A DNA stretch of 44,436 bases from Pleomorphomonas diazotrophica (GTDB taxonomy: Bacteria > Pseudomonadota > Alphaproteobacteria > Rhizobiales > Pleomorphomonadaceae). Below the pieces are notes generated by a model. The model worked only from the letters and a program-made list of their open reading frames with translations. It was not told the DNA's origin and ran no database searches. The translations under genes were made by a program, and so were the position numbers. Shown here in pieces: positions 4,235-33,880 of this stretch. How positions within the stretch are numbered: position 1 is the first letter of the stretch; every line of letters begins with the position of its first letter. Location of the stretch: positions 1-44,436 of the forward strand of contig NZ_PJNW01000024.1 in assembly GCF_002844595.1 (NCBI RefSeq), written 5' to 3'.

Positions 4235-4463
4235 GGTGGGCTCCCAAACAACGGTTGCCGCATTTGGCCGAGGCGAGGGGCACCGGTCAAGCGCCGACCG
4301 CACCATCCTCACGGAACGGTGCTGAGGGGCCGACTGTTGCCCGCGCGCGACAGCGTCCGACGGCCGTTGGCGCTGGATCGGATCGATCGGCGTCGGACGC
4401 TGGCGGGCAGGTGAGCGGACGGCTATCAAGAACCGGATCGTTTGCGGCAGGGGAGATTGCAGA

Positions 4464-5072: not shown

Positions 5073-5085
5073 TCCGCCGCTTGCC

Positions 5086-6105
5086 TCAAGGACAGTCGGC
5101 GATGCGACCGGCCGGCACGTCCCGGCAGAGACGGTCGGCATCGATCCAGCCGGCCGTCAAAGCCAGGTCCAGCGCATCGACGGTAATGGTGAAGGGCTGG
5201 AGATGCAGTTCGTAGGTCGTTCCCTGTCCATCGTCGAGCGGTCTTGCCACCCCGAGTTCGCGCGGGGAGTGGCCGTAGGCCAGTAGCAGCGCCACGTCGG
5301 CCGTCTTGCGCGCCAGCGCCTCATGGTCCTCCCAGATGGTGGCCGTCTGCTGTCCTCGGGCGATGCGGTTGAGCGTTTCCGGGTCGCCCCCCTGACCGAC
5401 AACGGCGACCTTCTCGACGAGGCCCCGTTCCTCCAGCACCGAAATGGCCTCCCCAGCGCTGGCGTCGTCAGGGGTCAGCACCGCGTCGACGCTGTTGCGG
5501 GTGGCGTCGAGGATATTGCCGAAGGCGCGGCGGGCATTGAGCGACAGGCCCCCCGGCGTATAGGCCTCGCCGGCGATCCGGATCAGCCCGGCACTGATGG
5601 AATCCTTGAGGACGGCGATCTGCCCCGCGTAAAGACGCGCGGTCTGTGGGTCGTCGAAGTCTCCTTTCAACAGCACCCAGTCGCCGCGCGGTCGGGCCGC
5701 ATAGAGAGCCAGCGCCTGCAGCCGCCCGACGTCGGCCTGGTTGAAGCCGATGGAGAACACGCCGTCGAGCCCGATGGGCCGGTCGTAGCCGATCACCGGA
5801 ATGCCGGCGGCGACCGCCATCTGGATCGACGTTTCGAGGGCGCGCGGATCGACCGCCGCAACGACCAGCACATCGACGTGGGCGTCGATGAGGCTTTTGA
5901 CGTCGAGGATCTGCTTGGCGGCCGACAGTCGGGCGTCAGTCTCGATCACCGCGCCTGAGGCGGCCGACACGGCGCTGCGGATCGTTTCCGAATCCACCTT
6001 CCACTGGCGCGCGGTATCTCCCGGCCAGCTCACGCCGATGACCGGCGAGGCAATCGCCGCTTGGCAGAGCAGCCCGAAGGCGATGGCCGAAAGCACTCCC
6101 CGCAT
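5086..6105 (-). CDS. Periplasmic sugar-binding protein, type I fold, without adjacent ABC subunits
   Basis: Predicted exported receptor of the periplasmic binding protein type I group (XylF/RbsB-like). After a signal peptide ending near CQAAIAS, the protein shows family landmarks: VIGVSWPGDTARQWKVD, LIDAHVDVLVVAAVDP, IPVIGYDRPI, DAVLTPDDASAGEAIS and VVGQGGDPETL. Length is 339 aa. I chose the ATG at 6105, with GGGGGAAC upstream and the signal peptide directly after it, over more distal in-frame starts. No permease or ATPase gene adjoins it; the neighbours are a Nudix gene and a divergent ROK regulator. It may serve a transporter encoded elsewhere or act as a sensory binding protein. The ligand is unknown; a pentose or similar sugar is only a guess from the family. 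Confidence 0.8.
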   Translation of the reverse strand: MRGVLSAIAFGLLCQAAIASPVIGVSWPGDTARQWKVDSETIRSAVSAASGAVIETDARLSAAKQILDVKSLIDAHVDVLVVAAVDPRALETSIQMAVAAGIPVIGYDRPIGLDGVFSIGFNQADVGRLQALALYAARPRGDWVLLKGDFDDPQTARLYAGQIAVLKDSISAGLIRIAGEAYTPGGLSLNARRAFGNILDATRNSVDAVLTPDDASAGEAISVLEERGLVEKVAVVGQGGDPETLNRIARGQQTATIWEDHEALARKTADVALLLAYGHSPRELGVARPLDDGQGTTYELHLQPFTITVDALDLALTAGWIDADRLCRDVPAGRIADCP

Positions 6106-6485
6106 GCCGAAGACGTTCCCCCCGAAAGCCGTTCTCATGGGCGCGCGGACAATACGCGTGAGGCCCCGCGTTGTGAAGCGTGACGGCGCGCCTACTCGAC
6201 CCAATGATTATCTTTGAAGCTCAAAAAAAGCGTGGACCGGGGCAGGGGGTGGTGTCAATATCCGGTGCCGCTCTGAGCCGGCTGCTTTGGGGGGATGCAG
6301 GCTGGTACCGGCCAGCTGCGTCTTCGGATCGGCGGCATGGTGAGCGGCGGAGGAGCCTCGACAGGCAAGCTTCGGCTGAAGAGTGTTCCATCCGGCAGAC
6401 AGGCCGGGGAAGGCTCCCAGTAGCAATTAAGAGGGGCGCCGGAGACAGGGAAGACCTGCCCGGCGGTGGGAGGACAGGCGTTATC
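6106..6485. promoter_or_regulatory. Divergent promoter region between sugar-binding protein and ROK regulator
   Basis: 380 bp separating the two divergent start codons. It must contain both promoters. A short A/T-rich stretch occurs near 6205-6235, but I could not pick a convincing core promoter or a clear ROK operator palindrome. Confidence 0.45.
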
Positions 6486-7775
6486 ATGACCGTGCGTGGA
6501 GATGGGTCGCGGCGCGTTTCCGTCGGCAAGGCCGACAGCGATCATGTCAGGCGGCAGAACAGGTCGTTGGTCTTGTCGGCCCTGCGTCGGCGCGAACCGA
6601 TTGCCCGTGTCGATCTTGGCGCCGAAACGCATCTGTCGCCTGCAACCATCACCGCGATCACCGCCGACCTGATCGCCGAGGGGCTGGTCGAAGCGCGCGA
6701 CGACGAGGTGGAGAGCGGCGAAGCCCAGGCGGAGCCGGCGCGGCGCGGCCGCCCGCGCGTCATGCTGCGCCTCGATCCGACGGCCGGCTATGTGCTGGCG
6801 GCCAAGATCTCACGCGACAGCATCGTTCTGCAGCTTGCCGATTTCGACGGGCGGATCATCGACCGGCAGGAAGCCATCGTGCCGACCTACGAGGAGACGC
6901 GCGACGGCTTCCCGGTCAAGCTCGCCGGCCTGCTCGGCCGCATCGTCGCCGACAATGGCATCGATTTCCGTCAGGTGGCGGAGATCGCCATCGGCGCGCA
7001 AGGCTTCGTCGACACCAACACGGGATCGGTGATGTGGTCGCCCGCCTTCAGCGTCCGCGACATGCGCCTCGTCGAGCCGCTGAAGGCGTTGACCGGCCGC
7101 AACTGCATCCTCTCCAACGACGCCAACATGATCGCCCAGGCGCTGCATGAGGCCAACCCGGATATCTACAGCGGCACCTTCGCGGTGATCTTCGTCGATC
7201 AGGGCGTTGGGGCCGGCCTGTTCGTCGGCGATCGCCTGCACCATGGCGCCGCTGGTTCGGCCGCCGAGTTCGGCCACATGAATCACTTGCCAAACGGCGC
7301 GCTCTGCCAATGCGGCCGGCGCGGCTGCCTCGAGGCCTATATCGCCGACTACGCCATCCACCGGCAGGCGCTCGGTCTGCCGGAGGACGCGCCGCCGCTC
7401 AGCGTCCGGCCGACGCAGGGCGAGCTGATCGCCCATGAGGCCGCCGCCTATGCCGGCGACGAGGCGATGCGGGCCATCTATGATCGGGCGGGCGAAGCTC
7501 TGGGCTACGGGCTGGCGCGGCTGATGGCCCTGATCAACCCGAGCCGCATCGTGCTGACCGGCGGTTCGGTTCGCGCCTACCCGCTGTTCGAGGCGGGGTT
7601 GAAAGCGGCGATCGAATCGGCGCTGGTCGAGGATCTCCGCCGGTCGACGGTGATCGAGACGTTGCCCTGGCAGACCGACATGATCATGACCGGCCTCGTC
7701 TCCTACATGCTGACGCGCCTTGATCGCGAGGTCTTCGCCAATCCCGCCGAGGCCCGGCGGTTCCGGGTCGGCTGA
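6486..7775 (+). CDS. ROK-family transcriptional regulator (NagC/XylR type)
   Basis: Likely sugar-responsive repressor. The N-terminal ~80 residues form a winged helix-turn-helix (VRRQNRSLVLSALRRREPIARVDL.., then HLSPATITAITADLIAEGLV). The rest is a ROK sugar-kinase-like domain with DQGVGAGLFVGDRLHHG, the GxxxEFGHM segment and the zinc-binding cysteine motif CQCGRRGCLE at about residues 276-285. Length 429 aa is typical. The open frame extends far upstream, but the ATG at 6486 with GGGAGG ahead fits the family start. It is divergent from a sugar-binding protein gene, the usual arrangement for a local regulator and its target, so control of that gene is a reasonable inference. It ends 5 bp from the convergent RND permease gene. 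Confidence 0.9.
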   Translation: MTVRGDGSRRVSVGKADSDHVRRQNRSLVLSALRRREPIARVDLGAETHLSPATITAITADLIAEGLVEARDDEVESGEAQAEPARRGRPRVMLRLDPTAGYVLAAKISRDSIVLQLADFDGRIIDRQEAIVPTYEETRDGFPVKLAGLLGRIVADNGIDFRQVAEIAIGAQGFVDTNTGSVMWSPAFSVRDMRLVEPLKALTGRNCILSNDANMIAQALHEANPDIYSGTFAVIFVDQGVGAGLFVGDRLHHGAAGSAAEFGHMNHLPNGALCQCGRRGCLEAYIADYAIHRQALGLPEDAPPLSVRPTQGELIAHEAAAYAGDEAMRAIYDRAGEALGYGLARLMALINPSRIVLTGGSVRAYPLFEAGLKAAIESALVEDLRRSTVIETLPWQTDMIMTGLVSYMLTRLDREVFANPAEARRFRVG

Positions 7776-7780
7776 TCTCT

Positions 7781-10700
7781 CTACTCCGCAGCGAGCTTGG
7801 GCTTGGTTGGTCCGGCCGGCTCGTCTTCGGTGAGACCGAGCGCTGCGGCGGCGGCGAGTTCGCCGGACAGCAGGCGCTCGACATGGCCGCGCGGCTTGGC
7901 GAAACGGGCCAGCATCAGATAGGCGACCGGCGTCAGGAACAGCGTGAACACCGTCGCGAAGCCGAGACCGCCCACCAGCACCCAACCGAGGGCGACGCGC
8001 GCCTCCGCGCCGGCGCCGAAGGCGAGAACCAGCGGCACAGCGCCGACGATGGTGGCGATCATGGTCATCACCACGGGCCTCAGGCGAATGCGGGCCGCCG
8101 TCTCGATCGCCTCGCGGACGCTGCGCCCTTCGTCGCGCAGTTGGTTGGCGAACTCGACGATCAGGATTCCGTTCTTGGCCATGATGCCGACCACCATGAC
8201 GAGGCCGATCTGGCTGTAGATGTTGAGCGTGCCGCCAGTGAAGCGGATGGCGAACACGGCGGCGGCGAGGCCGAAAGGCACGGTGGCGATGATGATCAGC
8301 GCCGCCACGAAGCTCTCGAACTGGGCGGCGAGCACCAGGAGAACGACGATCAGCGCGAAGCCGAAGGTGGTGGCAAGGCCGGACGACGTCTGGGCAAGCG
8401 CCGCCGCTTCGCCGGTCTGCTTGATGCCGTAGCCGGCCGGCAGCACCGAGGATGCCACCTCGTCGGCCACCGCCATCGCCTGCCGCAGCGCCACGCCGGG
8501 CGCCGGATCGATGGAGATGGGTACCGCCCGCTGCTGGCCGTCGCGCGACAGGCCGGGCGCCGTCGATCCCTCGACCAGCGTGGCGATGGCGCTCATTGGC
8601 ACCATCCGGCCGTCGCCGGTGCGCAGGAAGACGTTGCCGAGGTCGGTCGGATCGTCGATCGGCGTCGCCGACGACACCAGCTTGACCGGAATGATCCGGT
8701 CGCCCACCGAGACGTCGGCCACTTCGCGGCCGTCGAGCACCGACTGCAAGGCCTGCGCGAGGCCGGTGACGGGAATGCCGAGATCCTGCGCCCGGTCGCG
8801 GTCGATGCGAACGGACAGCTGCGGCTGCGTCGGCTGGTAGTCGAGGCTGGCGCTCCGCACCTCCGGCCGCGCCTCCAGCGACCTGATGAAGGCATCGCCC
8901 ACCTTGGCAAGTCCCTCGAAATCGGGGCCGACCAGGGAGAGGCGCAGTCCCTGGCCGCCGCCGCGGATGCCGAGCGAGTTGGAACTCATCGCCCGCGCCT
9001 GGATCGACGGGATGGCGGCAAGCTTGCCGTTGATCTCGGCAGCGATCTCCGCCTGTCCGCGCGATCGCTCTTCCCAGGGGGCGAGCGTCACCATCATGAA
9101 GCCGGAGTTGGTGTCGCCGCGCCCGGCGATGGCAAAGCTGGCGGTGGCCTCGCCACTGTCGAGATAGGGCTGGACGACGGCCGCCACCTTGTCCATCTGC
9201 CGCCCCATGTTGTCGATGGAGATGCCGGGGGGTGCGGTGACACTCAGCATCACCGAGCCGCGATCCTCGCGCGGCGTCAGCTCGTTCGGCAGAGTCTGGA
9301 AGACGCCCCAGGCGACGGCGGCGAAGGCCAGGGATGTTACCACTACCACGATGGGGGCAGCGAGCGCCGCATCGAGCAGCCGGCCGTAGAGCGCGGCAAG
9401 CGGCCGGCCGATCGCTCCGAGCAAGCGCGGCATGATCGCCTGCCTCTGCTTTTCCTCAGCCGGCAGGATGGTGGCGGCGAGCATCGGCGCGAAGGTCAGT
9501 GCGGTGAAGCCGGAGATGGTCACCGAGATGGCCAGCACGAAGCCGAACTCGCGGAACAGGCTGCCGGCGGTCCCCGGCAGGAAGGAGATCGGCACGAAGA
9601 CGGCGGCGAGCGTCGCCGTGGTCGCCAGCACGGCGAAGAACACCTCCTCGGTGCCGAGCACCGCCGCGGCACGCGGACGCATGCCCATGTGCCGGCGGCG
9701 GACGATGTTCTCCAACACGACGATGGCGTCGTCGACCACGAGGCCAGTGGCCAGCACTAGGGCCAGGAGCGTGACGATGTTGATCGAGAAGCCGATCAGC
9801 CACATCGCCGCCAGCGTGCCGATGAGCGACACCGGAATGGTGATGGCCGGAATCAGCGTCGCCCGCCAGTTGGCAAGAAACAGGTAGATGACGGCGACGA
9901 CGATGACGACGCCGAGGCCGAGCGCCAGGATCACCTCGTGCAGGGCGCCGTTGATGAAGCGCGCCTCGTCGGAGGTGATGGCGAGGTCGACACCGTCCGG
10001 CAGCGTCGGCTTCAGGCTGGCGACCACGCGAGCGACGTCGTTGGAAATCTGGATCGAGTTGGACCGGGCGGCGCGGACGATGCCCATGCCGATGCCGGCC
10101 TTGCCGTTGATCTTGAGTTGCGATGTGCCGGTGTCGGGGGCGAGCGACACGGTCGCCACGTCGCCGAGGCGCGTGGTGCCGTTTATCATCAGGCGGGCCA
10201 TGCCGGCGGCGTCGGTGACGCGCGCGTCGGCGCGCACAACCAGGCTGAGGTCACGGTTGGCAAGCGAGCCGGCGGGGCTGTCCATCGACACGGTGGACAG
10301 CGTCTGGGTGAGGTCGGCGACGGTAAGACCGCGAGCCGCCAGCGCCGTCTGGTCTATGTCGACGCGGAACACCGGCTCCTGGTCGCCGAACACCTGCACG
10401 TCGGCGACGCCGTCGACAGCAGCGAGCGCGTCGGCAATCCTGTCGTTGACGAGGCTGGTCAGCTCTTCCAGCGACACCCGATCCGAGGTGACGGCGATGC
10501 GGATGATGGCATCGCCGTCGGCATCGGCCTTGACGATCTGCGGCTCGTCGATGCCGTCCGGCAACTGGTTGCGGATGCGACTCACCACGTCGCGGGTATC
10601 GTTGGCGGCGACGTTGAGGTCGGTGTTCTCGGAAAACTCGATGGTGACGCGCGACCGGCCGAAGCTCGACCGTCCGGAAATCGACGTGACGCCGGCAACC

Positions 10701-10933
10701 CGCGACACCGCCGATTCGACACGGGCGGTGACGTCGGTATCGATGGTCTCCGGCGCGGCGCCGTCATAGCCGACGGTCACCGTCACCACGGGGCGGTCGA
10801 CGTCCGGCAGCTCGCGCACCTCGACGTCGCGATAGGCGGCAAGACCCGCGACGACCACCAGCGCGTTGACCACCAGCGCCAGCACCGGCCGGCGGACGAA
10901 CAGCGCGGTGAGGGCGTGGCTGCGGCCGCTCAT
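7781..10933 (-). CDS. RND efflux transporter, inner-membrane permease (AcrB/MexF type)
   Basis: Proton-driven inner-membrane pump of a tripartite efflux system, expelling hydrophobic or amphiphilic compounds across the envelope with the adaptor encoded just upstream. At 1050 aa it has the normal RND length, two large periplasmic loops and about twelve membrane helices. The proton-relay motif in helix 4, GLVVDDAIVVLEN, contains the paired aspartates needed for transport, and helix regions such as GIMAKNGILIVEFANQLR and RLRPVVMTMIATIVG are typical of the second half. The start codon overlaps the adaptor stop in an ATGA arrangement, indicating translational coupling. No outer-membrane channel gene is present, so a TolC-like partner must come from elsewhere. 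Substrates cannot be inferred. Confidence 0.95.
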   Translation of the reverse strand: MSGRSHALTALFVRRPVLALVVNALVVVAGLAAYRDVEVRELPDVDRPVVTVTVGYDGAAPETIDTDVTARVESAVSRVAGVTSISGRSSFGRSRVTIEFSENTDLNVAANDTRDVVSRIRNQLPDGIDEPQIVKADADGDAIIRIAVTSDRVSLEELTSLVNDRIADALAAVDGVADVQVFGDQEPVFRVDIDQTALAARGLTVADLTQTLSTVSMDSPAGSLANRDLSLVVRADARVTDAAGMARLMINGTTRLGDVATVSLAPDTGTSQLKINGKAGIGMGIVRAARSNSIQISNDVARVVASLKPTLPDGVDLAITSDEARFINGALHEVILALGLGVVIVVAVIYLFLANWRATLIPAITIPVSLIGTLAAMWLIGFSINIVTLLALVLATGLVVDDAIVVLENIVRRRHMGMRPRAAAVLGTEEVFFAVLATTATLAAVFVPISFLPGTAGSLFREFGFVLAISVTISGFTALTFAPMLAATILPAEEKQRQAIMPRLLGAIGRPLAALYGRLLDAALAAPIVVVVTSLAFAAVAWGVFQTLPNELTPREDRGSVMLSVTAPPGISIDNMGRQMDKVAAVVQPYLDSGEATASFAIAGRGDTNSGFMMVTLAPWEERSRGQAEIAAEINGKLAAIPSIQARAMSSNSLGIRGGGQGLRLSLVGPDFEGLAKVGDAFIRSLEARPEVRSASLDYQPTQPQLSVRIDRDRAQDLGIPVTGLAQALQSVLDGREVADVSVGDRIIPVKLVSSATPIDDPTDLGNVFLRTGDGRMVPMSAIATLVEGSTAPGLSRDGQQRAVPISIDPAPGVALRQAMAVADEVASSVLPAGYGIKQTGEAAALAQTSSGLATTFGFALIVVLLVLAAQFESFVAALIIIATVPFGLAAAVFAIRFTGGTLNIYSQIGLVMVVGIMAKNGILIVEFANQLRDEGRSVREAIETAARIRLRPVVMTMIATIVGAVPLVLAFGAGAEARVALGWVLVGGLGFATVFTLFLTPVAYLMLARFAKPRGHVERLLSGELAAAAALGLTEDEPAGPTKPKLAAE

Positions 10934-12153
10934 GGTTTGGTCCCTTCGACCCTGTTGGCCAGTTTCTCGGGGTCGCCGGCAGTCCGCACGGGAGCGTCGG
11001 CCCGCACCGACTGGATGCCTTCCACCACCACCGGGTCGCCGGGCTTGAGATCGCCGCTCACCAGCACCGTGTCGGCGTTTCGTTCGATGATGGCAACGCC
11101 GCTTCGCTTCGCCTTGCCGTCATCGATCGTCCAGACATAGGAGCCGTCCCGGTCCCACTGCACGGAGGGCGCCGGCACGGCGGTCTTCTCAACGCCGGGG
11201 AAGCGAAGGGTCACCGCGAAGGACATGCCGGGGCGAAGGCGGTCGTCGGGATTGTCCACCGTCGCCTGGGTTACCAGGGTGCGGCTGTCGGCTTCGATGC
11301 GGCTGCCGACGGCGGTGACCTTGCCCTCGAACAGCGCGCCGGGCTGCGACGGCGTCGCCACCTCGATCGGCTGACCGATGGCGACGCGGGCGGCGAAGGC
11401 CTCGGGAACGCGGAACTCGACCTTGATGGCGGAGCGGTCGTCGAGCGTGACGATCTCGGTGGAGGTCGACACCATGTCGCCCACCTCGACCGAGGTCAGG
11501 CCGACGATGCCGGCGAAGGGTGCGGCGATGACGCGGCGGCTGAGGTTGAGCTCGGCCTCCTGCAGGGCGAGCCGCGCCTTGGAGAGCTCGAAGCGCGCTG
11601 TGTCCAGCTCGGCGGCGGAAATCGCCCGCGTTTCCGCAAGCCTCTCGTTTCGGGATGCTCGGGCATCGGCGTCTTGCAGGGCGGCCTTCGCCTGCTCCAG
11701 GGCGATCTTCTCGCTGTCGTCATCGAGGCGGACAAGCGCGGCGCCGGCCTCGACCTTTGCGCCGGGCGTGAAGCCAATCTCAGTCACCATGCCGGTGGCC
11801 CTCGGGAAGACGGCGACGGTGCGAGCCGCCTCGGCGGTGCCGATGGCGCTGACGCGATCGGCCGTTTCGCTCATGACGACGGGAGCGGTGACCACCAGCG
11901 CCACCCTGGCGCCGCCGGCGCCTCCGCCTGTTCCCCGGTTGCCGCCGGTTTCGCCGCGGCGAGCACCCTCCGCCTTCGGCGTCGCTGCGGCGGCGCTATC
12001 GGCGGGAGCGAGGAAGGCCCATTGTGGCAGCAGCACTTCCGGTACGCCGGCGGCCATTAGCCGGGGACGCGCGGCCGGGTCGAGGGCTCCCCAGCCGATA
12101 ATCCCCGCCAGCCCCAGGATCAGGGCGAGCGCCAGTTGTTTCCAGAAGGCCAT
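10930..12153 (-). CDS. RND efflux periplasmic adaptor (HlyD/MFP family)
   Basis: Membrane-fusion protein that links the RND permease to an outer-membrane channel. An N-terminal membrane anchor (FWKQLALALILGLAGIIGW) is followed by a Gly/Ala-rich linker, then lipoyl and alpha-hairpin segments (TEIGFTPGAKVEAGAALVRLDD, a coiled-coil hairpin rich in Ala/Glu/Arg, and RVIAAPFAGIVGLTSVEVGDMV), and beta-barrel and membrane-proximal regions ending near GDPVVVEGIQSVRADAPV. Length 407 aa. The ATG at 12153 has GGAGCC upstream and is preferred to an in-frame TTG at 12183. It is the first gene of a two-gene operon with the permease. No local TetR-type regulator is present. Confidence 0.93.
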   Translation of the reverse strand: MAFWKQLALALILGLAGIIGWGALDPAARPRLMAAGVPEVLLPQWAFLAPADSAAAATPKAEGARRGETGGNRGTGGGAGGARVALVVTAPVVMSETADRVSAIGTAEAARTVAVFPRATGMVTEIGFTPGAKVEAGAALVRLDDDSEKIALEQAKAALQDADARASRNERLAETRAISAAELDTARFELSKARLALQEAELNLSRRVIAAPFAGIVGLTSVEVGDMVSTSTEIVTLDDRSAIKVEFRVPEAFAARVAIGQPIEVATPSQPGALFEGKVTAVGSRIEADSRTLVTQATVDNPDDRLRPGMSFAVTLRFPGVEKTAVPAPSVQWDRDGSYVWTIDDGKAKRSGVAIIERNADTVLVSGDLKPGDPVVVEGIQSVRADAPVRTAGDPEKLANRVEGTKP

Positions 12154-12291
12154 GGTCCGGCTCCATTTCGGCGATGCAGCCAAGGGATAATCCGGAAAAC
12201 TTGAGATACGAAAGCGGCGAAAATGTACGCAAGTGTAACACTTGGGGCCGGCTTGGCTCCATCATGCCATCCAAAGGCGTGAAAATGGCGG

Positions 12292-12837
12292 TCAGGGCGC
12301 GCGGCGGCGGAGCCATGGCCGGGTGCCGGCCGGCGGCTCCGGCAAGGCGCCCGGCTGGTAGTGGAGGTTGGGCGAAGGGTCGCGTCCCTCGGAAAGATAG
12401 CGGCGGGTGGTGTCGTTCTTGACCTCGAAGGCCGAGATGCCGACACGCCGCATGAGAGGGATCTCGTCGATCAGAACGTCACCGACTGCGCGGATCTCGC
12501 CGCCAAAGCCGGCACGGATGAGTCGGGCGGCATGGCTGAAGCCGCGGCCGTCGGCATACTTCGGAAAATCGACGGCAATGACGGCGAGCTGGCCGAGAAG
12601 AGGCAACACCTCCTCGAAGCGATCGGCCGGCGAGAAGAGAAGGCCCAGCCGGCGATTGCTCACGCTGTTGCCCTCCAGCACCGCCCGCAGCCCGGCGAGC
12701 GGCAGGATCAGGCCGTCGCTGCCATTGTCCTCGCTGGCGATGGCGAAGTCGTTGGGCTCGAAGCGGCCGGCGCGATAGACGTCCGGCGTCGAACTGCTGG
12801 TGGCGGCGCCCTGCGGCACGATGGCGGTGGCAACCAT
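12292..12837 (-). CDS. DUF934 protein of the assimilatory sulfite reduction cluster
   Basis: A 181-aa protein matching the DUF934 family, which co-occurs with cysH and cysI in alpha- and betaproteobacteria and is annotated as a probable sulfite-reduction accessory protein. The conserved core includes FSPADRFEEVLPLLGQLAVIAVDFPKYADGRGFSHA and later DVLIDEIPLMRRVGISAFEV. It is the last gene of the cluster and starts 3 bp after the cysH stop, so it is almost certainly cotranscribed. The molecular function is not established; electron transfer to, or assembly of, the sulfite reductase is a common suggestion and only an inference. Confidence 0.88.
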   Translation of the reverse strand: MVATAIVPQGAATSSSTPDVYRAGRFEPNDFAIASEDNGSDGLILPLAGLRAVLEGNSVSNRRLGLLFSPADRFEEVLPLLGQLAVIAVDFPKYADGRGFSHAARLIRAGFGGEIRAVGDVLIDEIPLMRRVGISAFEVKNDTTRRYLSEGRDPSPNLHYQPGALPEPPAGTRPWLRRRAP

Positions 12838-12840
12838 GGT

Positions 12841-13593
12841 TCAGATCCCCGGAATGACCGCGCCCGAAGGCTGGCCGAGATGAATGCCGCATTCGGTCTT
12901 GGCCTTGCCGCGCCAGCGGCCGGCCCGTTCGTCCTCGCCCGGCCGCACCTTGTCGGTGCAGGGCAGGCAGCCGATCGACGGATAGCCCTCGGCGACCAGC
13001 GGATGCGGCGGCAGGCGGCGCGCCTCTCGATAAGCCTCAATGCGCGCCCGATCCCAGCCAAGCAGCGGGTTGACCTTGATCCGCCCATTCGACGCCTCGA
13101 ACAGCGGCAGGTTCGCCCGCGTGTCCGCCTGATAGCGCTTGCGGCCGGAAATCCAGGCCGAATAGGGCGCGAGCGCAGCGGCAAGCGGCTTCACCTTGCG
13201 GATGTCGCAGCAGGCGTCGGTGTCGGCCATCCATAGCGCGCCGGCCGGATCGATCGTGGCGAGGTCGGCTGCCTCCGGTTGGCGGATGACGAGGCCGGTG
13301 AGGCCGAGCGCTTCAACCAGCCCGTCGCGATAGGCTATGGTTGCCGGGAAGAGCTTGCCGGTGTCGAGGAAGATCACGGGCAGCGAGCGGTCGATGTCGG
13401 CGACCATGGCGAGCAGCACGGCGCTGTCGGCGCCGAAGCTCGACACCAGCGCGATCTTGCCGGCGTAAAGATCGAGCGCGGCGGCGACGATCGCTTCCGC
13501 GTCTTCGCCTTCGTGACGGGCGGAGAGCAGGCGCGCCTCAGCGGCAAGCCCCTGGTCCGGATCGACGGCAAGGCCGAGTGCGTCAAGCACCAT
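12841..13593 (-). CDS. cysH: Adenylylsulfate (APS) reductase, assimilatory, iron-sulfur type
   Basis: Reduces activated sulfate to sulfite for cysteine synthesis in the cytoplasm. The 250-aa protein has the PP-loop SSFGADSAVLL at residues 51-61 and the nucleophilic cysteine motif ECGIHLG near the C-terminus (C235). It also has the two cysteine pairs that bind a 4Fe-4S cluster, C128-C129 (CCDIRKVKPL) and C209/C212 (GCLPCTDKV). Those pairs are characteristic of the APS-using bacterial and plant type; the PAPS-using enterobacterial type lacks them. Substrate preference for APS is therefore inferred with good confidence. The ATG at 13593 has a strong AAGGAGG and overlaps the end of cysI by 11 bp, showing tight coupling; a long in-frame extension upstream is cysI read in another frame. 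Confidence 0.94.
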   Translation of the reverse strand: MVLDALGLAVDPDQGLAAEARLLSARHEGEDAEAIVAAALDLYAGKIALVSSFGADSAVLLAMVADIDRSLPVIFLDTGKLFPATIAYRDGLVEALGLTGLVIRQPEAADLATIDPAGALWMADTDACCDIRKVKPLAAALAPYSAWISGRKRYQADTRANLPLFEASNGRIKVNPLLGWDRARIEAYREARRLPPHPLVAEGYPSIGCLPCTDKVRPGEDERAGRWRGKAKTECGIHLGQPSGAVIPGI

Positions 13594-26529: not shown

Positions 26530-29500
26530 TTACTCGGCGAGAACACGCGTCGACGGGAAGGTGATCTGGATCATCGTGCCCTGGCCGGGCGTCGAGTCGA
26601 TCTGGAAGGCGGCGCGGTTGGCTTCGACCAGCGCCTTGGTGAGCGGCAGGCCGAGACCGGTGCCGCCGCCGGTCCGTGACGTTGAGAGCTGACGGAACGG
26701 TTCCATCGCCTTGACGATGTCGCCCTCGCTCATCCCCTGTCCGGTATCGCGGACCCGGAGCACCACCTCGCCGGATTCCTCGTAGAGCGTCGAGACGATC
26801 ACCTGACCACCGGCCGAGTTGAACTTCACGGCATTGGACAGGAGATTCAGGATGATCTGCCGAAGGCTGCGATTGTCGGCCACCACGGGAGGTAGGCTCG
26901 ACGACAGCGAGGTGCGGATGATGATCCGCTCGCGGTTGGCCTGCGGCTGCATCAACGCCGCGCATTCCCGCACCACGTCGTTGAGCCCCACGGCCTCGAA
27001 GGTCAGTTCGAGCTTGCCCGCCTCGATCTTCGAGAGGTCGAGAAGGTCGTTGACCAAGCTCATGATATGGGTGCCCGACACGTGGATGTCGCGCAGGTAT
27101 TCCTTATAGCGCTCGTTGCCGACCGGGCCGAAGCGCTCCTCCATCATCACCTCGGAGAAGCCGATGATGGCGTTGAGCGGCGTCCGGATTTCGTGGCTCA
27201 TCTTGGCCAGGAAATCCGATTTCTGCGACGAGGCGTTCTCCGCTGCCTTCTTGGCGGAGGTTAGCTCCTCCTCGGCCCGCTTCCATTGGGTGATGTCGCG
27301 GAGCACGGCGCAGAACTTGGTCGGCGATACCCGGCCGACCGTCATGAACAGCGGCACCAGACCGCCGCCGGCGACGCGGCCGATCACCTCGCGCCCGTCG
27401 TTGAGCACGCTGGACAGCGCGTTGCGGCCGAGGCCGTCGAGATAGTCGAGCGCCGAGCGGTGGCTTTCGGGGGCCAGGAGGTCGACGAAGGCCATGCCGA
27501 TCATGTGCGACCGCTCGTTGCCGAACAGCGCTTCGGCCGACTTGTTGGCGCCGATCACCAGCCCTTTCTGGTCGAGCACCAGCACGCCGTCGGTGGCGGT
27601 GTCGAGAATGGCCTCCATGTCTTCCGCCCGCTGCTCGGCGGTGGCAAGACGGTCGCGGCTGGTGGCGGCGGCGGTTTCCTGGACCACCAGAAGCGAGGCG
27701 ATGCCGCCGTCCATCGGCATGGAATGCAGCCGGGCCGACACGGGGATCTCGACGCCGTCGCGCCGGCGAATGGCGGGAATGGCCGCGTCGCGGCTGAGGG
27801 CCGCGCCCTCGAACACCTGGGCGAAACCGCCGTCGCCATCGATCGTCGCGACGTCCGGATAGCCGCAGAGGTCGAGGAAGGCGCGGTTGGCGTGGATGAT
27901 GTCGCCGCCCCTCAGAATGGCGAGCGCCACCGGCAGCTTGTCGAGCAGCGCGACGTCGACGGACGGCCCGATTTCAGGCTGGGTCTCGGCCTGGCGACTG
28001 ACGACGGGAATCGGGTGAACAGGCTGGCGATCCGCCGGATCGGCCATGATGCGCGGCCCGAAGGCGTCGGCCAGCGCCTCGGCGATCTTGTCGAAGGCGT
28101 CGCGCTCCGGTTTGGAAAGGGCTTTCGCCTTGTCGCCGGTCAGGCTGGCAAAGGTGGCGCGATGGGTAGCCGCCGGTGCGGAGGTCACCTCGCTGACCGA
28201 TGGCGCGGCCGGCTCGGGGTCGATCGGCTCCGCTGCCACCTCGTCTGCAGATACAGAAAGCGGCGGAAGCTCGGGATCGGCCAGGTCTGACGCAACGTCT
28301 TCAGGGGGCGTCACGAGCGGCAGCGGCTCGACCAGTTCGTCCGCTTCGGTCGGCTCCTCATCGGCGAGCAGCGTCTCGTCCGGAAGATCCTGTTCGGTGG
28401 CGGCGGTGATATCGGAAAGATCGGCCTCGCTGGCAACGTCAACAGGTTCATCAGCGATCTCGACGTCAGCTTCCGTCGAAGATCCATCTGCCGTTTCGGC
28501 TTCAGGTTCCTCCGGCGCCACCTCATCGGCCGTGCCGACCTCAGCTTCCATCAGGGCCGTCTCATCGGCGGTCTCGAAGGAGGGGAATGTCTCGGGTTCC
28601 GAGGCGTCCGGCGTCTCGGCCGCCAACGCGTCGGAGATGGTCTCTTCCGTCGTCTGCGGCAGCTCGGGAGTATCGGACTCGGGTGCCGCTTCCGCTGCGG
28701 CATCCTCGACGGCTCGTGCCTCCTGCACTGCTTCCGCTGAGGAGACGTCGTCGACGACCAGGGGAGCGTCGGCGCCGTCGTCCACCGGTTGCTCGGCACT
28801 CTCCGCGCCGACAATCGCAACCGAAGAGACCTCCTCCTCAGTGACACCGTCCGTTGCATCGCTCTCCGTCGGCGGCAGTGGGGCTGCCTCGTCGGGTTCG
28901 GATGCGGCGATCGGCTCGGCAGGGATCGGCGCCTCGAAAGCGGCACCGGTCTTCAGCACGCCGAAGCCGCGATACCCGCGGAACGCACGTTCGCGGCCGA
29001 ACACCGGCATGCCCGCCAGATCGGCCGGCACGCGCAGGTTCTCTCCTTCCACTGGCCAGTCGACGGTAAGCCCGGTGAAGGTGTCGCGGTGACCGAGCGC
29101 CTCGGCGATGCGTCCCGCCGGATCGAACTCGAGGCGGCCGGCGACCTCGGACCAGGTGCGTCCGAGGATGTCAGCCATGCCGGGGCCGACCGTCGCGGCA
29201 AGGTCGGCCGAAACGAAGGTGAAAGCCAGCAGCGGGTCGAGCTCGAAGACGAAGCGAACGGGCCGGCCGTGGGTCGGGAAGACGAAGGCCGGCGCGGCAG
29301 CCTCGGGCGTCGCGTCAACCGTCTCGGGCGGAACGTCCTCGGCATTCGTCTCGGAAACAGCCGGTTCCGGCGCAGCTTCCGCGAGGGAGGGTTCGGCGGT
29401 CTCGGGCGCCGTATCCTCCGGCGCTTCGACGCGGCCATCCGGCTCCGAGGACGCTTCCTGCAACACTGTTTCGACATCCGCAGACGGTTCGGCTTGGTCC

Positions 29501-30303
29501 TTCTCGACGTCGGCGTCGCACGGCTCGGCCTCAACTTCCTCGGCGGTCGCCTCGCCTTCGGCGACGGCGTCCGGCTCGGCCGCCAGATCCTCTTCGGCGC
29601 TTTCGGAGGAGGCCTCTTCGGAGACCGTCTCGAAAGTCTCGGCGACCTCCGGCAAAGGAGCATCGATGACGGCTTCGGTATTGTCCGCCACGAGGTCGAG
29701 AACCGCCTCTTCGGCCGTGATCTCATCGGCGGTATCGATCGGCTCGGGCATGTCCGGCGCGGCCGCGTCGACAACGGTCTCGATCGGCTCGGCTGCATCC
29801 GTCGCAACCACGTCGCTGACGATCCCGATCGGTTCCGCTGCGGTGTTCTCGGTCTTTGCCACGGTTTCCGCAGCCGGGGGCAGGGCGGTCGCCGTGAGGG
29901 CAGCGAAGGCCGAGACCGGATCGCCGGTAAATGACCCCGTGCCGTCGACGATGGTGAGCAGGATCGCCTTGACGCCGTCCGCCGTCACACGACTGGCCTT
30001 GCAGACCGTCGGGCGGGGCAGCAGACCGCGTTGCAGGGGCAACCGCTCGATCCGGTCCTGGCTGCTGACCAGCATGTCGTCGAGAGTGGCAATGCGGCGC
30101 GCGAAAGGTGAGTTGGAAGCGAAGCGCAGCGCCGTCAGCTTGTCGATTGTCGTGACGCCGAAGAAGGCAGCTCCGGCGGCGTTGGCCCAGAGCAGTCGGC
30201 TACCGGTCCGGTCGACGACAAGGGACGGTCGGGTATCGGCCACGAGCGGACCGACGTTCTCCGTCTGGCTCAGGACTCTGAACAGATCTGCTCCGCCGGA
30301 CAT
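26530..30303 (-). CDS. pdhS: PAS-domain sensor histidine kinase of the PdhS/DivJ/PleC group with a long acidic insert
   Basis: Large kinase (1257 aa) probably feeding the DivK-CtrA cell-cycle relay of alphaproteobacteria. An N-terminal PAS-like region (LLWANAAGAAFFGV) precedes roughly 600 residues of low-complexity sequence rich in Ala, Glu, Pro and Asp, interrupted by a globular stretch (FVFPTHGRPVRFVFELDPLLAF..). Two further PAS domains follow, then the dimerisation region with phosphorylated H1037 in FLAKMSHEIRTPLNAIIGFSE and the PdhS/DivJ-type continuation EERFGP. The ATPase domain has N1153 (NLLSNAVKF), DTGQG (1186-1190) and GGGTGLGLPL. No membrane helix is obvious, so it should be cytoplasmic or recruited. 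The ATG at 30303 (GGAG upstream) is preferred to a start at 30405. The PdhS name is a family-level inference. Confidence 0.82.
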   Translation of the reverse strand: MSGGADLFRVLSQTENVGPLVADTRPSLVVDRTGSRLLWANAAGAAFFGVTTIDKLTALRFASNSPFARRIATLDDMLVSSQDRIERLPLQRGLLPRPTVCKASRVTADGVKAILLTIVDGTGSFTGDPVSAFAALTATALPPAAETVAKTENTAAEPIGIVSDVVATDAAEPIETVVDAAAPDMPEPIDTADEITAEEAVLDLVADNTEAVIDAPLPEVAETFETVSEEASSESAEEDLAAEPDAVAEGEATAEEVEAEPCDADVEKDQAEPSADVETVLQEASSEPDGRVEAPEDTAPETAEPSLAEAAPEPAVSETNAEDVPPETVDATPEAAAPAFVFPTHGRPVRFVFELDPLLAFTFVSADLAATVGPGMADILGRTWSEVAGRLEFDPAGRIAEALGHRDTFTGLTVDWPVEGENLRVPADLAGMPVFGRERAFRGYRGFGVLKTGAAFEAPIPAEPIAASEPDEAAPLPPTESDATDGVTEEEVSSVAIVGAESAEQPVDDGADAPLVVDDVSSAEAVQEARAVEDAAAEAAPESDTPELPQTTEETISDALAAETPDASEPETFPSFETADETALMEAEVGTADEVAPEEPEAETADGSSTEADVEIADEPVDVASEADLSDITAATEQDLPDETLLADEEPTEADELVEPLPLVTPPEDVASDLADPELPPLSVSADEVAAEPIDPEPAAPSVSEVTSAPAATHRATFASLTGDKAKALSKPERDAFDKIAEALADAFGPRIMADPADRQPVHPIPVVSRQAETQPEIGPSVDVALLDKLPVALAILRGGDIIHANRAFLDLCGYPDVATIDGDGGFAQVFEGAALSRDAAIPAIRRRDGVEIPVSARLHSMPMDGGIASLLVVQETAAATSRDRLATAEQRAEDMEAILDTATDGVLVLDQKGLVIGANKSAEALFGNERSHMIGMAFVDLLAPESHRSALDYLDGLGRNALSSVLNDGREVIGRVAGGGLVPLFMTVGRVSPTKFCAVLRDITQWKRAEEELTSAKKAAENASSQKSDFLAKMSHEIRTPLNAIIGFSEVMMEERFGPVGNERYKEYLRDIHVSGTHIMSLVNDLLDLSKIEAGKLELTFEAVGLNDVVRECAALMQPQANRERIIIRTSLSSSLPPVVADNRSLRQIILNLLSNAVKFNSAGGQVIVSTLYEESGEVVLRVRDTGQGMSEGDIVKAMEPFRQLSTSRTGGGTGLGLPLTKALVEANRAAFQIDSTPGQGTMIQITFPSTRVLAE

Positions 30304-30427
30304 GCCGCGTCTCCACCTTTTTCGACACCGGGGCGTCTCGACCGGTGGCGCCGGCAGTAAAAATCCGCCGTCTCCGACCGATTGGGCAGGCCGGACAGCA
30401 AACATCCGGCCCGTATAGCGTCTTCAG

Positions 30428-30779: not shown

Positions 30780-30858
30780 AAGGATTTTGGTCAAGGATGC
30801 CGTTCGTGCGGCTGCCGTGAAGAGCAGCGTCAGCGACGTAACAGGACGGGCGACAGCC

Positions 30859-33072
30859 ATGACGGATGAGCCGATCGCAGATGAGAACCCGGTACGTTTC
30901 ACGGCCCGGCAGCCTGGCCCGGCATCGCTGGCCTCGGCGACACCCGGCAACGTTCCTTTCCAAAGCCGCTCCGCCCCAATTATCGACATGATGGCTCGCT
31001 TTGCCGCCTGGCCCCTGATGACGGCCCTCCGGCGCGCCCTGCTTCTGTCACTGCCGCTCGTGCTGGTTGGCGCCTTCGCGTTGTTCGTCAGCGCCCTTAC
31101 CACTCTTCCCTTTGCCGGAGGGTTTCCCGTCGGGGCCGTCGAGGCTGTGCGTGCCGTTTGCGCCACGCTCGTCGACGGCACCTTCGGCCTGGTCGCCCTG
31201 GTGTTGGTGGCTGGCTTTTCTCATTCGTTGGCCACGCTGACCGGTACCCGCGCCGACAGTAACCCGGTCAACCCGTCGAGCGTCTCCGTGGTAGCGCTAG
31301 CGTGCTTCTTTATCACTGTGGCGCCCGACACGACGGAGCGCTGGAAGGAGGCGCTGTCGTCGTCGCGCGGACTGCCGGCGGCGCTGGTCGTCGCCATCAG
31401 CGCCAGCTACCTGTTCTTGTTCCTGGCGCGGCGTCCGCAGTTCCGGCTTCGGCTGCGCGGCCTCGGCGCGGACCCGCTGGTCGGCGACCTGTTTTCCATT
31501 CTGCCGGCCGGCATGATCACGCTCACGGTCTTCGCCATGATCCGGCAGGCGCAGGTGGCCTTCGGCGGGCCAGACCTGACGACGGCGCTGTCGGCTGCCA
31601 TATCCGCGCCTTTCACCGGCGCCGAACCTTCGGCATTGCTGGTTGCCGCCCATGCGCTGATCAGCCAGTTCCTGTGGTTCCTCGGCGGGCACGGCGCCAA
31701 CATGATGCTGCCCGTCGTGGAGCAGATGGTCGCGGCGGCCGGCGCCGACGGCCCGGCCAGCGTCGTCACCTGGAGTTTTTTCTCCGTCTATGGGGGACTC
31801 GGCGGCTCAGGCGCGACCCTCTGCCTGATCGTCGCGCTCCTCTATGCCGACCGCGATCCATCGACCCGCCGGCTCGCCTGGCTGTCGCTGCTGCCCGCCT
31901 TGGTCAACGTCAACGAACCTCTGGTATTCGGCCTGCCGCTGATCCTAAACCCAGTCTATGCCATTCCGTTCGTCCTGACCCCCGTCCTGCTGTCGCTCAT
32001 CGCCTATGCGGCGACGGCCGTCGGCCTCGTGCCGGTCGCCGATCAGGCTGTTTCCTGGACGATGCCAGCGCTCGTCAGCGGCTATCTCGCCACCGGCTCA
32101 CCGGCTGGAGCCGTTTTGCAGCTCGTGGAACTCGCCGTAGGGACGTTGCTCTATCTCCCCTTTGTCCGGATTGCCGCCCGCCTGCGGCTCGCCAGCAATG
32201 CCGAAGCGATGAGTCGGCTGCTTGCCGCTTCGGTCTCCGACGAGGTGGTGCATGGGCACCGGCTGATTGATCTTCCGGGCACCGCGGGACGCCTCGCCAA
32301 TGCGCTGAGCCGCGACCTCGTCGATGCGCTCGCCTCGTCGGATCGCCTCTATCTTCAGTACCAGCCGCAGGTCAGCATCGAGGAACGCAGGGTGTTCGGC
32401 GTCGAGGCGCTTCTCCGCTGGGAACATGAGGTCTACGGTCTCATCCCGCCGTCGGTGACGGTCGCGCTGGCAGAGGACCTGCAAATCGTCGACCGTTTGG
32501 GCGAGCATGTGCTCCGTCTTGCCTGCCGGCAGCGCGCCGCCTGGGGGAAGTCGGTGGCCGACGATCTCATCGTCTCCGTCAACATCTCGCCGCGCCAGTT
32601 GCAGGATGCCGACTTCGACCTGAAGGTTCTGCGCATTCTCGCCGAGACGGGGTTGGAGCCTTCTCTGGTCGAACTTGAAATCACCGAGTCGACATCGCTT
32701 GCACCTGCCACCCAGGCAATCGGAGCTTTGCTGCGCCTGCGCAACGCCGGCGTCCGCATTGCGCTCGATGACTTTGGCATGGGGCACACTTCCTTGCATT
32801 ATCTGCGCGAACTGCCCCTCGACACGGTGAAGATCGATCGATCCCTTACCTTCACCAGCCAGGGCGACCTCAACGAGCATGTGATCCGGTCGATTGTCGC
32901 GCTCAGCCGCACCCTTGGCCTCCGCGCCGTGGTGGAGGGCATCGAGCAGCCCGAACAGCTTCCTCGGTTCATCGATCTCGGCTGCGCTCGCTTCCAGGGC
33001 TATCTGTTCTCAAGACCGCTCGAAAGCGGGCCTTGCCTCGACTACATCAGGGCCAACGCCGGCGCTGCCTGA
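30859..33072 (+). CDS. PTS EIIC-like membrane domain fused to an EAL c-di-GMP phosphodiesterase
   Basis: Two-part signalling or transport protein of about 737 aa. Residues ~40-450 form a polytopic domain of the lactose/cellobiose PTS EIIC family with about ten helices; diagnostic motifs are WFLGGHGANMM (~273-283) and NVNEPLVFGLPLILNP (~350-365) with the conserved glutamate E353. Residues ~480-735 form an EAL domain with the full catalytic set: E516 (VEALLRW), N in VNISPRQL, E607 (LEITES), D637-D638 (DDFGMGHTSL), K658 (VKIDRS), E693 (VVEGIEQ) and Q in RFQGYLF. It should hydrolyse c-di-GMP in the cytoplasm. No EIIA or EIIB domain is attached and no other PTS gene is nearby, so sugar sensing may be more likely than phosphotransfer. 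The ATG at 30859 is chosen; an in-frame TTG at 30787 would add 24 residues, and neither has a strong ribosome site. Confidence 0.9.
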   Translation: MTDEPIADENPVRFTARQPGPASLASATPGNVPFQSRSAPIIDMMARFAAWPLMTALRRALLLSLPLVLVGAFALFVSALTTLPFAGGFPVGAVEAVRAVCATLVDGTFGLVALVLVAGFSHSLATLTGTRADSNPVNPSSVSVVALACFFITVAPDTTERWKEALSSSRGLPAALVVAISASYLFLFLARRPQFRLRLRGLGADPLVGDLFSILPAGMITLTVFAMIRQAQVAFGGPDLTTALSAAISAPFTGAEPSALLVAAHALISQFLWFLGGHGANMMLPVVEQMVAAAGADGPASVVTWSFFSVYGGLGGSGATLCLIVALLYADRDPSTRRLAWLSLLPALVNVNEPLVFGLPLILNPVYAIPFVLTPVLLSLIAYAATAVGLVPVADQAVSWTMPALVSGYLATGSPAGAVLQLVELAVGTLLYLPFVRIAARLRLASNAEAMSRLLAASVSDEVVHGHRLIDLPGTAGRLANALSRDLVDALASSDRLYLQYQPQVSIEERRVFGVEALLRWEHEVYGLIPPSVTVALAEDLQIVDRLGEHVLRLACRQRAAWGKSVADDLIVSVNISPRQLQDADFDLKVLRILAETGLEPSLVELEITESTSLAPATQAIGALLRLRNAGVRIALDDFGMGHTSLHYLRELPLDTVKIDRSLTFTSQGDLNEHVIRSIVALSRTLGLRAVVEGIEQPEQLPRFIDLGCARFQGYLFSRPLESGPCLDYIRANAGAA

Positions 33073-33211
33073 ACGGCAGTACAGCCGTCTGGGACGGCGG
33101 GCGAAAGCGTGGTACCAAACGCAGAAACGACCGCGCGACCTTCGTGAGGGTCGAGGAAGGACGGGTCGGTCCTCCATCGCGGCCGAGAAGGAACGTGCGA
33201 TGGGAGGCACC

Positions 33212-33880
33212 ATGTCCGTCACCTCGTTAGCGGCGCTCGCCGCGATCATAGATCACACAATCCTGCGCCCAGATGCCACCGAGGCTGACGTCGAGAACTT
33301 CTGCGCCGAAGCCTTGCAGTGGAACTTCGCCTCCGTCTGCGTCAATCCGCTCCATGTCCCACGCGTCGCCGTACTCTTGCGCGGCTCGGCGGTCAGAACC
33401 GGTTCGGTGGTCGGCTTCCCGCTGGGGGCCACGCCAACCGAACTCAAGCGTCGCGAGTTGGAGTGGGTGCTGGCAGAAGGCGCCGCCGAGGTGGACATGG
33501 TGATCTCCATCGGCACCTTGAAAAGCGTCGGCGCAGGTCCGATCGGCGACGAGGTCGCCACACTCAAGACCGCTTGCGGCAGCGTGCCGCTCAAGGTGAT
33601 TTTGGAAACGTCGCTTTTGACCGACGACGAGATCGTCGCTGCTTCGCTTGCCGCCAAGAGAGCCGGCGCCGATTTCGTGAAGACATCGACCGCCTTCACC
33701 CAGAAGGGCGCGACCGTCGAGACGGTGGCCCTGATGCGCCGCACCGTGGGGCCAGAGATGGGCGTGAAGGCGTCCGGCGGCATCCGCTCCTTCGCCGAGG
33801 CCATGGCGATGATCGAGGCGGGGGCGAACCGCATCGGCACCAGCCGAGGCGTGGCCCTGATGCGGGAGGCGCACTTCTAG
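33212..33880 (+). CDS. deoC: Deoxyribose-phosphate aldolase
   Basis: Class I aldolase splitting 2-deoxyribose-5-phosphate into glyceraldehyde-3-phosphate and acetaldehyde, used in deoxynucleoside breakdown. The 222-aa protein has the Schiff-base lysine K157 in FVKTSTAF, the helper lysine K186 in GVKASGGIRS and the catalytic aspartate D95 in EVDMVISIG; GFPLGA (69-73 region) is also diagnostic. The ATG at 33212, with GGGAGG four bases upstream, is preferred to an ATG at 33200. It lies 139 bp downstream of the EIIC-EAL gene on the same strand; cotranscription is possible but not shown. The other deo genes are not in the window. Confidence 0.95.
   Translation: MSVTSLAALAAIIDHTILRPDATEADVENFCAEALQWNFASVCVNPLHVPRVAVLLRGSAVRTGSVVGFPLGATPTELKRRELEWVLAEGAAEVDMVISIGTLKSVGAGPIGDEVATLKTACGSVPLKVILETSLLTDDEIVAASLAAKRAGADFVKTSTAFTQKGATVETVALMRRTVGPEMGVKASGGIRSFAEAMAMIEAGANRIGTSRGVALMREAHF

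What the first reader, a model, noticed from the sequence alone, without database searches (positions are those of the whole stretch)
30859..33072. PTS EIIC-like membrane domain fused to a complete EAL phosphodiesterase
Seen: one frame encodes about ten hydrophobic segments with EIIC hallmarks (GGHGANMM, NVNEPLVFGLP) and then an EAL domain with all expected catalytic residues. Known: PTS EIIC proteins bind and translocate sugars; EAL domains degrade c-di-GMP. Inference: the protein reports sugar occupancy to c-di-GMP, linking carbon supply to motility or attachment. No EIIA, EIIB, EI or HPr gene is nearby, so it may sense rather than phosphorylate sugar. Architectures of this kind may be annotated in databases, but I know of no characterised mechanism.
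Basis: partly seen in the sequence, partly recalled or inferred. Interest (0 to 1): 0.8.

Follow-up and report, generated by a model that had tools for sequence, protein, structure and literature searches.

The report
Sugar-transporter domain fused to c-di-GMP phosphodiesterase
A bacterial protein joins a sugar-transporter membrane domain to an enzyme that destroys the signal molecule c-di-GMP, and the transporter half usually lacks the partner proteins it would need to work as a transporter, so it is probably a membrane sugar sensor that helps set lifestyle decisions.

Summary
Window 30859-33072 (+) is one intact gene (737 aa): a lactose/cellobiose-type PTS EIIC domain followed by an EAL domain with all eight catalytic positions. 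Databases already name such fusions, and a 2022 review lists PTS_EIIC as a rare "phosphoreceiver" in c-di-GMP proteins; I found no functional study. What I add: it belongs to a family of at least 69 protein clusters, with fusions in named genomes of four phyla, whose two halves diverge together; and the EIIC half is mostly cut off from the PTS. The window's genome has two sugar PTS but no Lac-type EIIA, and its PF02302 EIIBs are of other types. Of 17 other fusion-bearing genomes, 2 have Lac-type EIIA, 4 any PF02302 EIIB, 12 EI, 14 HPr. Yet residues aligned to the ChbC sugar site are kept. Best reading: a transporter-derived sugar receptor whose rearrangement passes along a continuous helix to the phosphodiesterase, without PTS phosphorylation. 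Ligand, sign of control and output are unknown.

The parts
30859..33072 (+). complete coding sequence of the EIIC-EAL fusion protein, 737 aa (frame open back to a TTG at 30787)
   Evidence: start as in relatives P0001 and P0009
30988..32202 (+). lactose/cellobiose-type EIIC membrane domain (residues 68-472 in the 761-aa numbering; PF02378 core 31033-31983)
   Evidence: TIGR00410 191.8 bits (below its cut-off of 236), PF02378 64.2 bits over cut-off; ChbC 3qnq E 1.8e-39; the seven best VIA-align rows are PTS EII proteins, two of them integrative models
31690..31692 (+). codon of H302 (GGHG motif), aligned to ChbC H250; its sugar-site role is recalled
   Evidence: alignment; H in 54 of 55 rows
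31915..31917 (+). codon of E377 (NVNEP motif), aligned to ChbC E334; its sugar-site role is recalled
   Evidence: alignment; E in 54 of 55 rows
32101..32235 (+). last membrane helix of EIIC, predicted as one unbroken helix (residues 439-483) that runs on beyond the hydrophobic stretch (439-464)
   Evidence: AlphaFold models; hydropathy
32236..32310 (+). short connector before EAL (residues 484-508); many relatives carry a 'D..G..aR.L' motif here
32311..33018 (+). EAL c-di-GMP phosphodiesterase domain (residues 509-744) with all eight catalytic positions
33200..33880 (+). deoC-like aldolase gene on the same strand, 127 bases downstream if it starts at the ATG at 33200; possibly co-transcribed; a conserved neighbour, not shown to belong to the mechanism
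   Evidence: PF01791 69 bits; beside the fusion in 11 of 12 same-genus loci, window included

Best explanation
A one-component membrane receptor. A lactose/cellobiose-type EIIC that has lost (or never had) its phosphotransfer partners binds an extracytoplasmic sugar or sugar-like ligand in its conserved pocket. Ligand-dependent movement of the EIIC transport domain is passed through the continuous last membrane helix (residues 439-483) and a short connector to the cytoplasmic EAL domain, changing its dimer geometry and so its c-di-GMP hydrolysis. Shown here: both domains, their key residues, the divergence of both halves together, the missing matching EIIA/EIIB and, as a prediction, the continuous helix. 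Inferred: ligand binding, the movement as the signal, PTS independence in the living cell, and control of the phosphodiesterase. Unknown: which ligand, activation or inhibition, and the output.
For: EIIC profile and ChbC matches. Positions aligned to ChbC W245, H250, E334 and W382 are kept in 54, 54, 54 and 55 of 55 rows of A1 and in 25, 25, 25 and 26 of 26 rows of the more divergent A2. EAL catalytic positions are kept in every row of both sets. No Lac-type EIIA in the window's genome nor in any of 20 genomes of its family, 12 of which carry the fusion; the genome's two PF02302 matches are the mannitol IICBA and an orphan fructose-type IIB. Of 17 other fusion-bearing genomes: Lac IIA 2, PF02302 IIB 4, EI (PF05524) 12, HPr 14; in the 5 without PF05524 the full EI model TIGR01417 has no match over its cut-off either, though 4 of them have weak partial matches below it. 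EIIC and EAL distances among 45 fusions correlate (r 0.79; highest of 999 permutations 0.19), and fusion rows cluster in both trees. A continuous helix leaves the membrane part in both models.
Against: The H and E positions kept are also those used in PTS transport and phosphorylation (recalled), so conservation does not separate sensing from transport. The window's genome has complete-looking EI-HPr-EIIA proteins, so cross-talk through another EIIB is not excluded; 14 of 17 other genomes have HPr and 12 have EI. No ligand, assay or expression data exist. Single divergent members change a key position: P0054 H to P, P0052 E to D, P0055 W297 to S. Several fusion-bearing genomes are drafts or MAGs and no completeness is given for the 17, so absences are weaker there. 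The rate of Lac EIIA in matched genomes without the fusion was not measured beyond the family. Monomer models cannot show the dimer or any ligand effect.
Confidence: 0.57

Rival explanations
1. The EIIC still takes part in PTS phosphotransfer, borrowing an EIIB/EIIA from another system, and the EAL domain reads sugar flux or phosphorylation state (the 'phosphoreceiver' view in the 2022 review PMC8846402).
For: EI and HPr exist in this genome and PF05524 EI in 12 of 17 others; the residues aligned to ChbC H250 and E334 are kept; an orphan fructose-type EIIB exists in this genome.
Against: No Lac-type EIIA in 20 of 20 family genomes, 12 of them with the fusion, and in 15 of 17 distant ones; no PF02302 EIIB in 13 of 17; no EI in 5 of 17. 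EIIC itself carries no phosphorylation site in PTS biochemistry (recalled).
Confidence: 0.15
2. The EIIC is a passive membrane anchor and dimerisation platform; the EAL enzyme is constitutively active or controlled by partners.
For: A solved EIIC is a dimer (passages of PMC12900739), and a dimer would favour EAL activity (recalled). The EIIC part diverges faster than the EAL part in nearly every row (for example 72% against 84% identity in P0011).
Against: A passive anchor need not keep the sugar-site residues down to about 30% identity and across four phyla.
Confidence: 0.15
3. A transceptor: EIIC moves an unphosphorylated sugar across the membrane as a facilitator and signals while doing so.
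For: The EIIC domain and motifs are complete; elevator-type transport is proposed for ChbC and MalT (passages of PMC7329351). An OprD-type porin gene directly follows the fusion in one distant locus (L019).
Against: No energy-coupling partner, and no sugar-kinase or named glycosidase family among the 20 neighbour proteins scanned with Pfam (8 in the window, 12 in distant loci); most neighbours of the distant loci were not scanned.
Confidence: 0.1

Closest known systems
ChbC/CelB/LacE, EIIC of the lactose/cellobiose PTS family (PDB 3qnq)
   Different: A C-terminal EAL domain is attached, the family's NCBIfam cut-offs are not reached, and the EIIA and EIIB that make a working permease are missing from most genomes examined that carry it.
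EAL-domain c-di-GMP phosphodiesterases with sensor domains (for example BifA, MorA, DosP)
   Different: The input domain is a transporter-type EIIC, not PAS, GAF, Cache or MHYT (those kinds recalled and named in passages of PMC8846402), and Pfam finds no GGDEF domain.
PdeS-EIIA(Glc) of Vibrio cholerae (PMC6877527; abstract and one results section read)
   Same: Links sugar supply to an EAL phosphodiesterase.
   Different: There a separate EIIA, through its phosphorylation state, binds and controls a PAS-EAL protein. Here a membrane EIIC is in the same chain and the phosphorelay appears unnecessary.
PTS_EIIC domains counted among c-di-GMP signalling architectures in a 2022 review (PMC8846402; passages read, its tables not)
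   Same: The same class of architecture, described there as rare.
   Different: The review calls EIIC a phosphoreceiver domain. The genome survey here argues against that for this family.

Membership tests
PTS EIIC, lactose/cellobiose family | PF02378 match over the curated cut-off | tested here: met
   64.2 bits against 30.7; 26 of 26 members of A2 also match PF02378 at the E-value limit of 10 used there
PTS EIIC, lactose/cellobiose family | Family model TIGR00410/TIGR00359 over its curated cut-off | tested here: not met
   191.8 bits, the best EIIC models in NCBIfam, but below 236 and 434: related to the family, not a typical member
PTS EIIC, lactose/cellobiose family | Conserved HG and N-E sugar-site motifs | tested here: met
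   H302 and E377 in 54 of 55 rows each; the following proline in 47 of 55
PTS EIIC, lactose/cellobiose family | Works with matching Lac-type EIIA and EIIB | tested here: not met
   no PF02255 in the own genome; its two PF02302 matches are mannitol- and fructose-type; PF02255 in 2 of 17 other fusion genomes. That Lac-type EIIB falls under PF02302 is recalled
PTS EIIC, lactose/cellobiose family | Phosphorylation-coupled sugar uptake | not testable with these tools
   needs biochemistry
EAL c-di-GMP phosphodiesterase | PF00563 match and full catalytic set | tested here: met
   210 bits; eight positions kept in 55 of 55 rows
EAL c-di-GMP phosphodiesterase | Hydrolysis of c-di-GMP to pGpG | not testable with these tools
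   needs an assay
HAMP-type signalling linker | HAMP profile match in the connector | tested here: not met
   PF00672 not among the families matched by the 26 members of A2; profile comparison aligns only 14 columns at the D..G motif, probability 3.6%, score 14.7 against a maximum of 13.3 and mean of 9.3 in 40 column shuffles

The most novel reading that the evidence does not exclude
An ancient and widespread receptor family in which the elevator movement of a transporter fold, freed from its phosphorelay, is itself the transmembrane signal: a PTS-independent EIIC reads outside sugars directly and sets c-di-GMP through an attached EAL enzyme, in at least four phyla and in bacteria that appear to have no sugar PTS at all.
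Probability: 0.4. Interest if true: 0.8.

Novelty: new variant of a known kind. Interest (0 to 1): 0.56.

Why it matters
For most c-di-GMP enzymes the input signal is not known (a point also made in the conclusions of PMC8846402, passage seen). If right, this family gives a direct single-protein route from an outside sugar to c-di-GMP, with a ligand pocket that can be predicted from ChbC. It would also be a clear case of a transporter turned receptor, in which the elevator mechanism could be tested as a signalling step, and it would correct the view of these EIIC domains as phosphoreceivers.

Tried and rejected
Frameshift or assembly error: rejected. HAMP linker: a D..G..aR.L motif in the connector of many relatives looks HAMP-like, but no profile supports it; kept only as a lead. 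Ligand from gene neighbourhood: 29 loci were clustered (17 distant, 11 same-genus, the window). Apart from the fusion cluster and a loose cluster built round the window's kinase gene (20 loci, 9 of them distant), no neighbour cluster covers more than 3 distant loci. Within the genus a deoC gene is beside the fusion in 11 of 12 genomes (G014 lacks it), and a block of kinase, fusion, deoC, aldo-keto reductase, a 557-aa gene without Pfam match and a LacI gene is kept, which may be plain synteny. Of the two same-genus genomes without the fusion, G010 has no match to this deoC and G018 has matches of 69% and 56%; the 69% one lies where none of the other block genes was found within the 12 kb taken. 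A GGDEF protein was seen near the fusion in 3 distant loci (L013, 3.8 kb off and also carrying EAL; L017, 1.5 kb off; L028, between two fusions), with 10 neighbour proteins scanned in that call. Phage collection: 5 records match at E up to 1e-40, none over 80% of the query. Plasmid collection: 2 records at E up to 1e-60, a 2.6-Mb Acetoanaerobium record and a Clostridioides difficile record.

Single origin of the fusion: not proven. The EIIC tree needs at least 3 label changes (2 forced by well-supported branches) and the EAL tree 2 (1 forced). These trees used 45 fusions of my choice (the window, 28 of the 69 clusters, 16 frames from 15 loci), 12 EIIC rows without EAL (one an IIC-IIB fusion) and 35 other EAL rows; the comparison rows came from searches with the fusions themselves and are not a fair sample. 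Three fusions (P0050, L017, L019) fall weakly beside the stand-alone EIICs. Long branches (P0055, P0120, P0121) were not removed. The distance correlation does not correct for shared descent of the hosts.

Rows dropped: A1 left out P0047 (partial, 481 aa) and P0056 (no EAL match). A2 holds the window, 9 protein clusters and 16 frames from 15 loci; L018 (no frame recovered by my script) and L021 (cut by the contig end) were left out of A2, but their genomes were kept in the 17-genome counts. The same script also missed the frame in L126, which one search shows. The two protein searches scored only the 7994 and 7995 candidates sharing most words.

Papers: the ChbC structure paper (Cao 2011) was not read; the roles of W245, H250, E334 and W382 are recalled, and only their alignment is. 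I recall that a 2011 survey of Clostridium difficile c-di-GMP enzymes may include a relative; it is not held and was not read. 'I found no functional study' rests on searches of an open-licence library; of the papers listed there I opened three (PMC8846402, PMC10513181 and PMC6877527), and one search listed only 15 of 211.

Full report
Observation. The frame at 30787-33072 (+) is open throughout; relatives place the start at ATG 30859. Residue numbers below count from the TTG at 30787. Pfam finds PTS_EIIC (64.2 bits, residues 83-399) and EAL (210 bits, residues 509-744), both over cut-off. NCBIfam's best EIIC models are the lactose/cellobiose ones (191.8 bits, below their cut-offs), so the domain is a divergent relative of LacE/CelB/ChbC. 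The only solved structure matched by the membrane part's sequence at E up to 1 is ChbC 3qnq, E 1.8e-39.

The residues. In alignment A1 (window plus 54 fusions) the eight EAL catalytic positions are unchanged in 55 of 55 rows; the positions aligned to ChbC W245, H250, E334 and W382 are kept in 54, 54, 54 and 55. In A2 (26 rows, down to 28% identity) the EAL positions are again unchanged and the four EIIC positions are kept in 25, 25, 25 and 26 rows. The proline after the glutamate is free to vary (47 of 55 rows keep it in A1, 8 of 26 in A2). The roles of the ChbC residues are recalled, not read; for the glucose-family EIIC a conserved glutamate is described as essential for transport and phosphorylation (passages of PMC12900739).

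Distribution. Two database searches returned 69 clusters with both domains (55 of 106 hits; 14 further among 113 hits). Named hosts include Pleomorphomonas and Methylophaga (names), and from the genome scan Thiorhodococcus, Azoarcus, Nisaea and Duganella (Pseudomonadota), Desulfobulbus and Desulfovibrio (Thermodesulfobacteriota), Sporomusa, Desulfosporosinus and Clostridium viride (Bacillota) and Treponema (Spirochaetota). A Clostridioides difficile record carries one too (28% identity; both Pfam domains). In the window's own family a near-full-length fusion is in 12 of 14 genomes of the genus (the window's included) and in 0 of 6 of the other genera.

A unit with a shared history. In trees of each domain the fusion rows cluster strongly: 3 label changes for EIIC (45 fusions, 12 without EAL; shuffled mean 11.2) and 2 for EAL (45 fusions, 35 others; shuffled mean 26.2), with 0 of 500 shuffles as low in either. 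EIIC and EAL distances among the 45 fusions correlate, r 0.79, against at most 0.19 in 999 permutations. One or a few old fusion events fit better than repeated recent fusion. Against a single origin: the EIIC tree forces at least 2 changes, three fusions fall weakly beside the stand-alone EIICs, and the comparison rows were found with the fusions and are not a fair sample.

Cut off from the PTS. The window's genome (4.5 Mb, completeness 100) has three PF02378 proteins: this one, a mannitol IICBA and a glucose-type IICB, with two EI-HPr-EIIA(Glc-type) fusions and a third HPr match. Its PF02302 matches are the mannitol protein and an orphan fructose-type IIB. No Lac-type EIIA is found here or in any of 20 family genomes, 12 of which carry the fusion; the same search detects it in 3 of 14 control genomes. 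Among 17 other fusion-bearing genomes: HPr 14, EI 12, PF02302 EIIB 4, Lac EIIA 2. Three (Desulfovibrio OttesenSCG-928-I05, Desulfosporosinus hippei, Synergistales MS499-57) have no match to any of the four; Clostridium viride and a Bacillota MAG have an HPr match but none to EI, PF02302 or Lac EIIA. The full EI model gives no match over its cut-off in these five; four have weak partial matches below it, as do control genomes in which it stays below the cut-off. Two of the five are named culture-collection strains; no completeness is given for any of the 17. These numbers argue against a general need for PTS phosphorylation, and so against calling EIIC here a phosphoreceiver, as the 2022 review does (passages of PMC8846402). 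They do not exclude cross-talk in genomes that have EI, HPr and another EIIB, this one among them.

Neighbours. In the genus the order kinase, fusion, deoC, aldo-keto reductase, 557-aa protein, LacI regulator is kept, with deoC missing in 1 of 12 and the kinase cut by contig ends in two. In distant loci no PTS family was found among the 12 neighbour proteins scanned. No ligand can be named.

Novelty. Databases already name such proteins (for example 'PTS sugar transporter subunit IIC/EAL domain-containing protein'), and PTS_EIIC is counted among c-di-GMP architectures in a review. Searches listed no functional study that I recognised, in an open-licence library only. The nearest tested link of sugar to an EAL enzyme, PdeS with EIIA(Glc) (PMC6877527; abstract and one results section read), works through the phosphorylation state of a separate protein. 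I rate this a new variant of a known kind: a sensor-EAL protein whose sensor is a transporter fold detached from its phosphorelay.

Noticed in passing
own genome G000:C36:86905-87183 (L009 about 10882-11286, minus strand): Orphan fructose-type EIIB gene (TIGR00829 90 bits, over its cut-off); no EIIC or EIIA was seen directly beside it, and its neighbours look like glmS and a Crp-type regulator (judged by eye).
   Followed up: partly
own genome L009:2456-5017 (minus) and L010:5096-7690 (plus): Two EI-HPr-EIIA(Glc-type) triple fusions, one beside a mannitol PTS gene and one beside a glucose-type PTS gene.
   Followed up: partly
L028 (Duganella radicis) 4035-6176 and 9555-12041: Two EIIC-EAL fusions in tandem with a Reg_prop/Y_Y_Y-GGDEF gene between them: a possible paired cyclase and phosphodiesterase unit.
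   Followed up: partly
L015 (Sporomusa ovata) 5721-7760 and 11396-13084: Chemoreceptor (MCP) genes lie on both sides of the fusion, the first 160 bases upstream.
   Followed up: no
L019 (Desulfovibrio) 5256-6710: An OprD-family porin gene starts at or inside the end of the fusion gene, a possible co-transcribed outer-membrane partner.
   Followed up: no
connector of fusions, window about 32236-32310 and A2 rows: A recurring D..G..aR.L motif just before the EAL helix resembles the second half of a HAMP domain, without profile support.
   Followed up: partly
P0121: A 432-aa EIIC without EAL that falls among the fusions in the EIIC tree, on a long branch; may have lost or split off its EAL domain.
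   Followed up: no
NZ_CP149720.1 (locus L140): A record labelled a C. difficile plasmid carries this EIIC-EAL gene near rlmH and a DnaD-domain gene, which suggests chromosomal DNA.
   Followed up: no
window 26533-30405 (minus): Large PAS-histidine kinase with a long low-complexity acidic N-terminal half (judged by eye), conserved beside the fusion in the genus.
   Followed up: no
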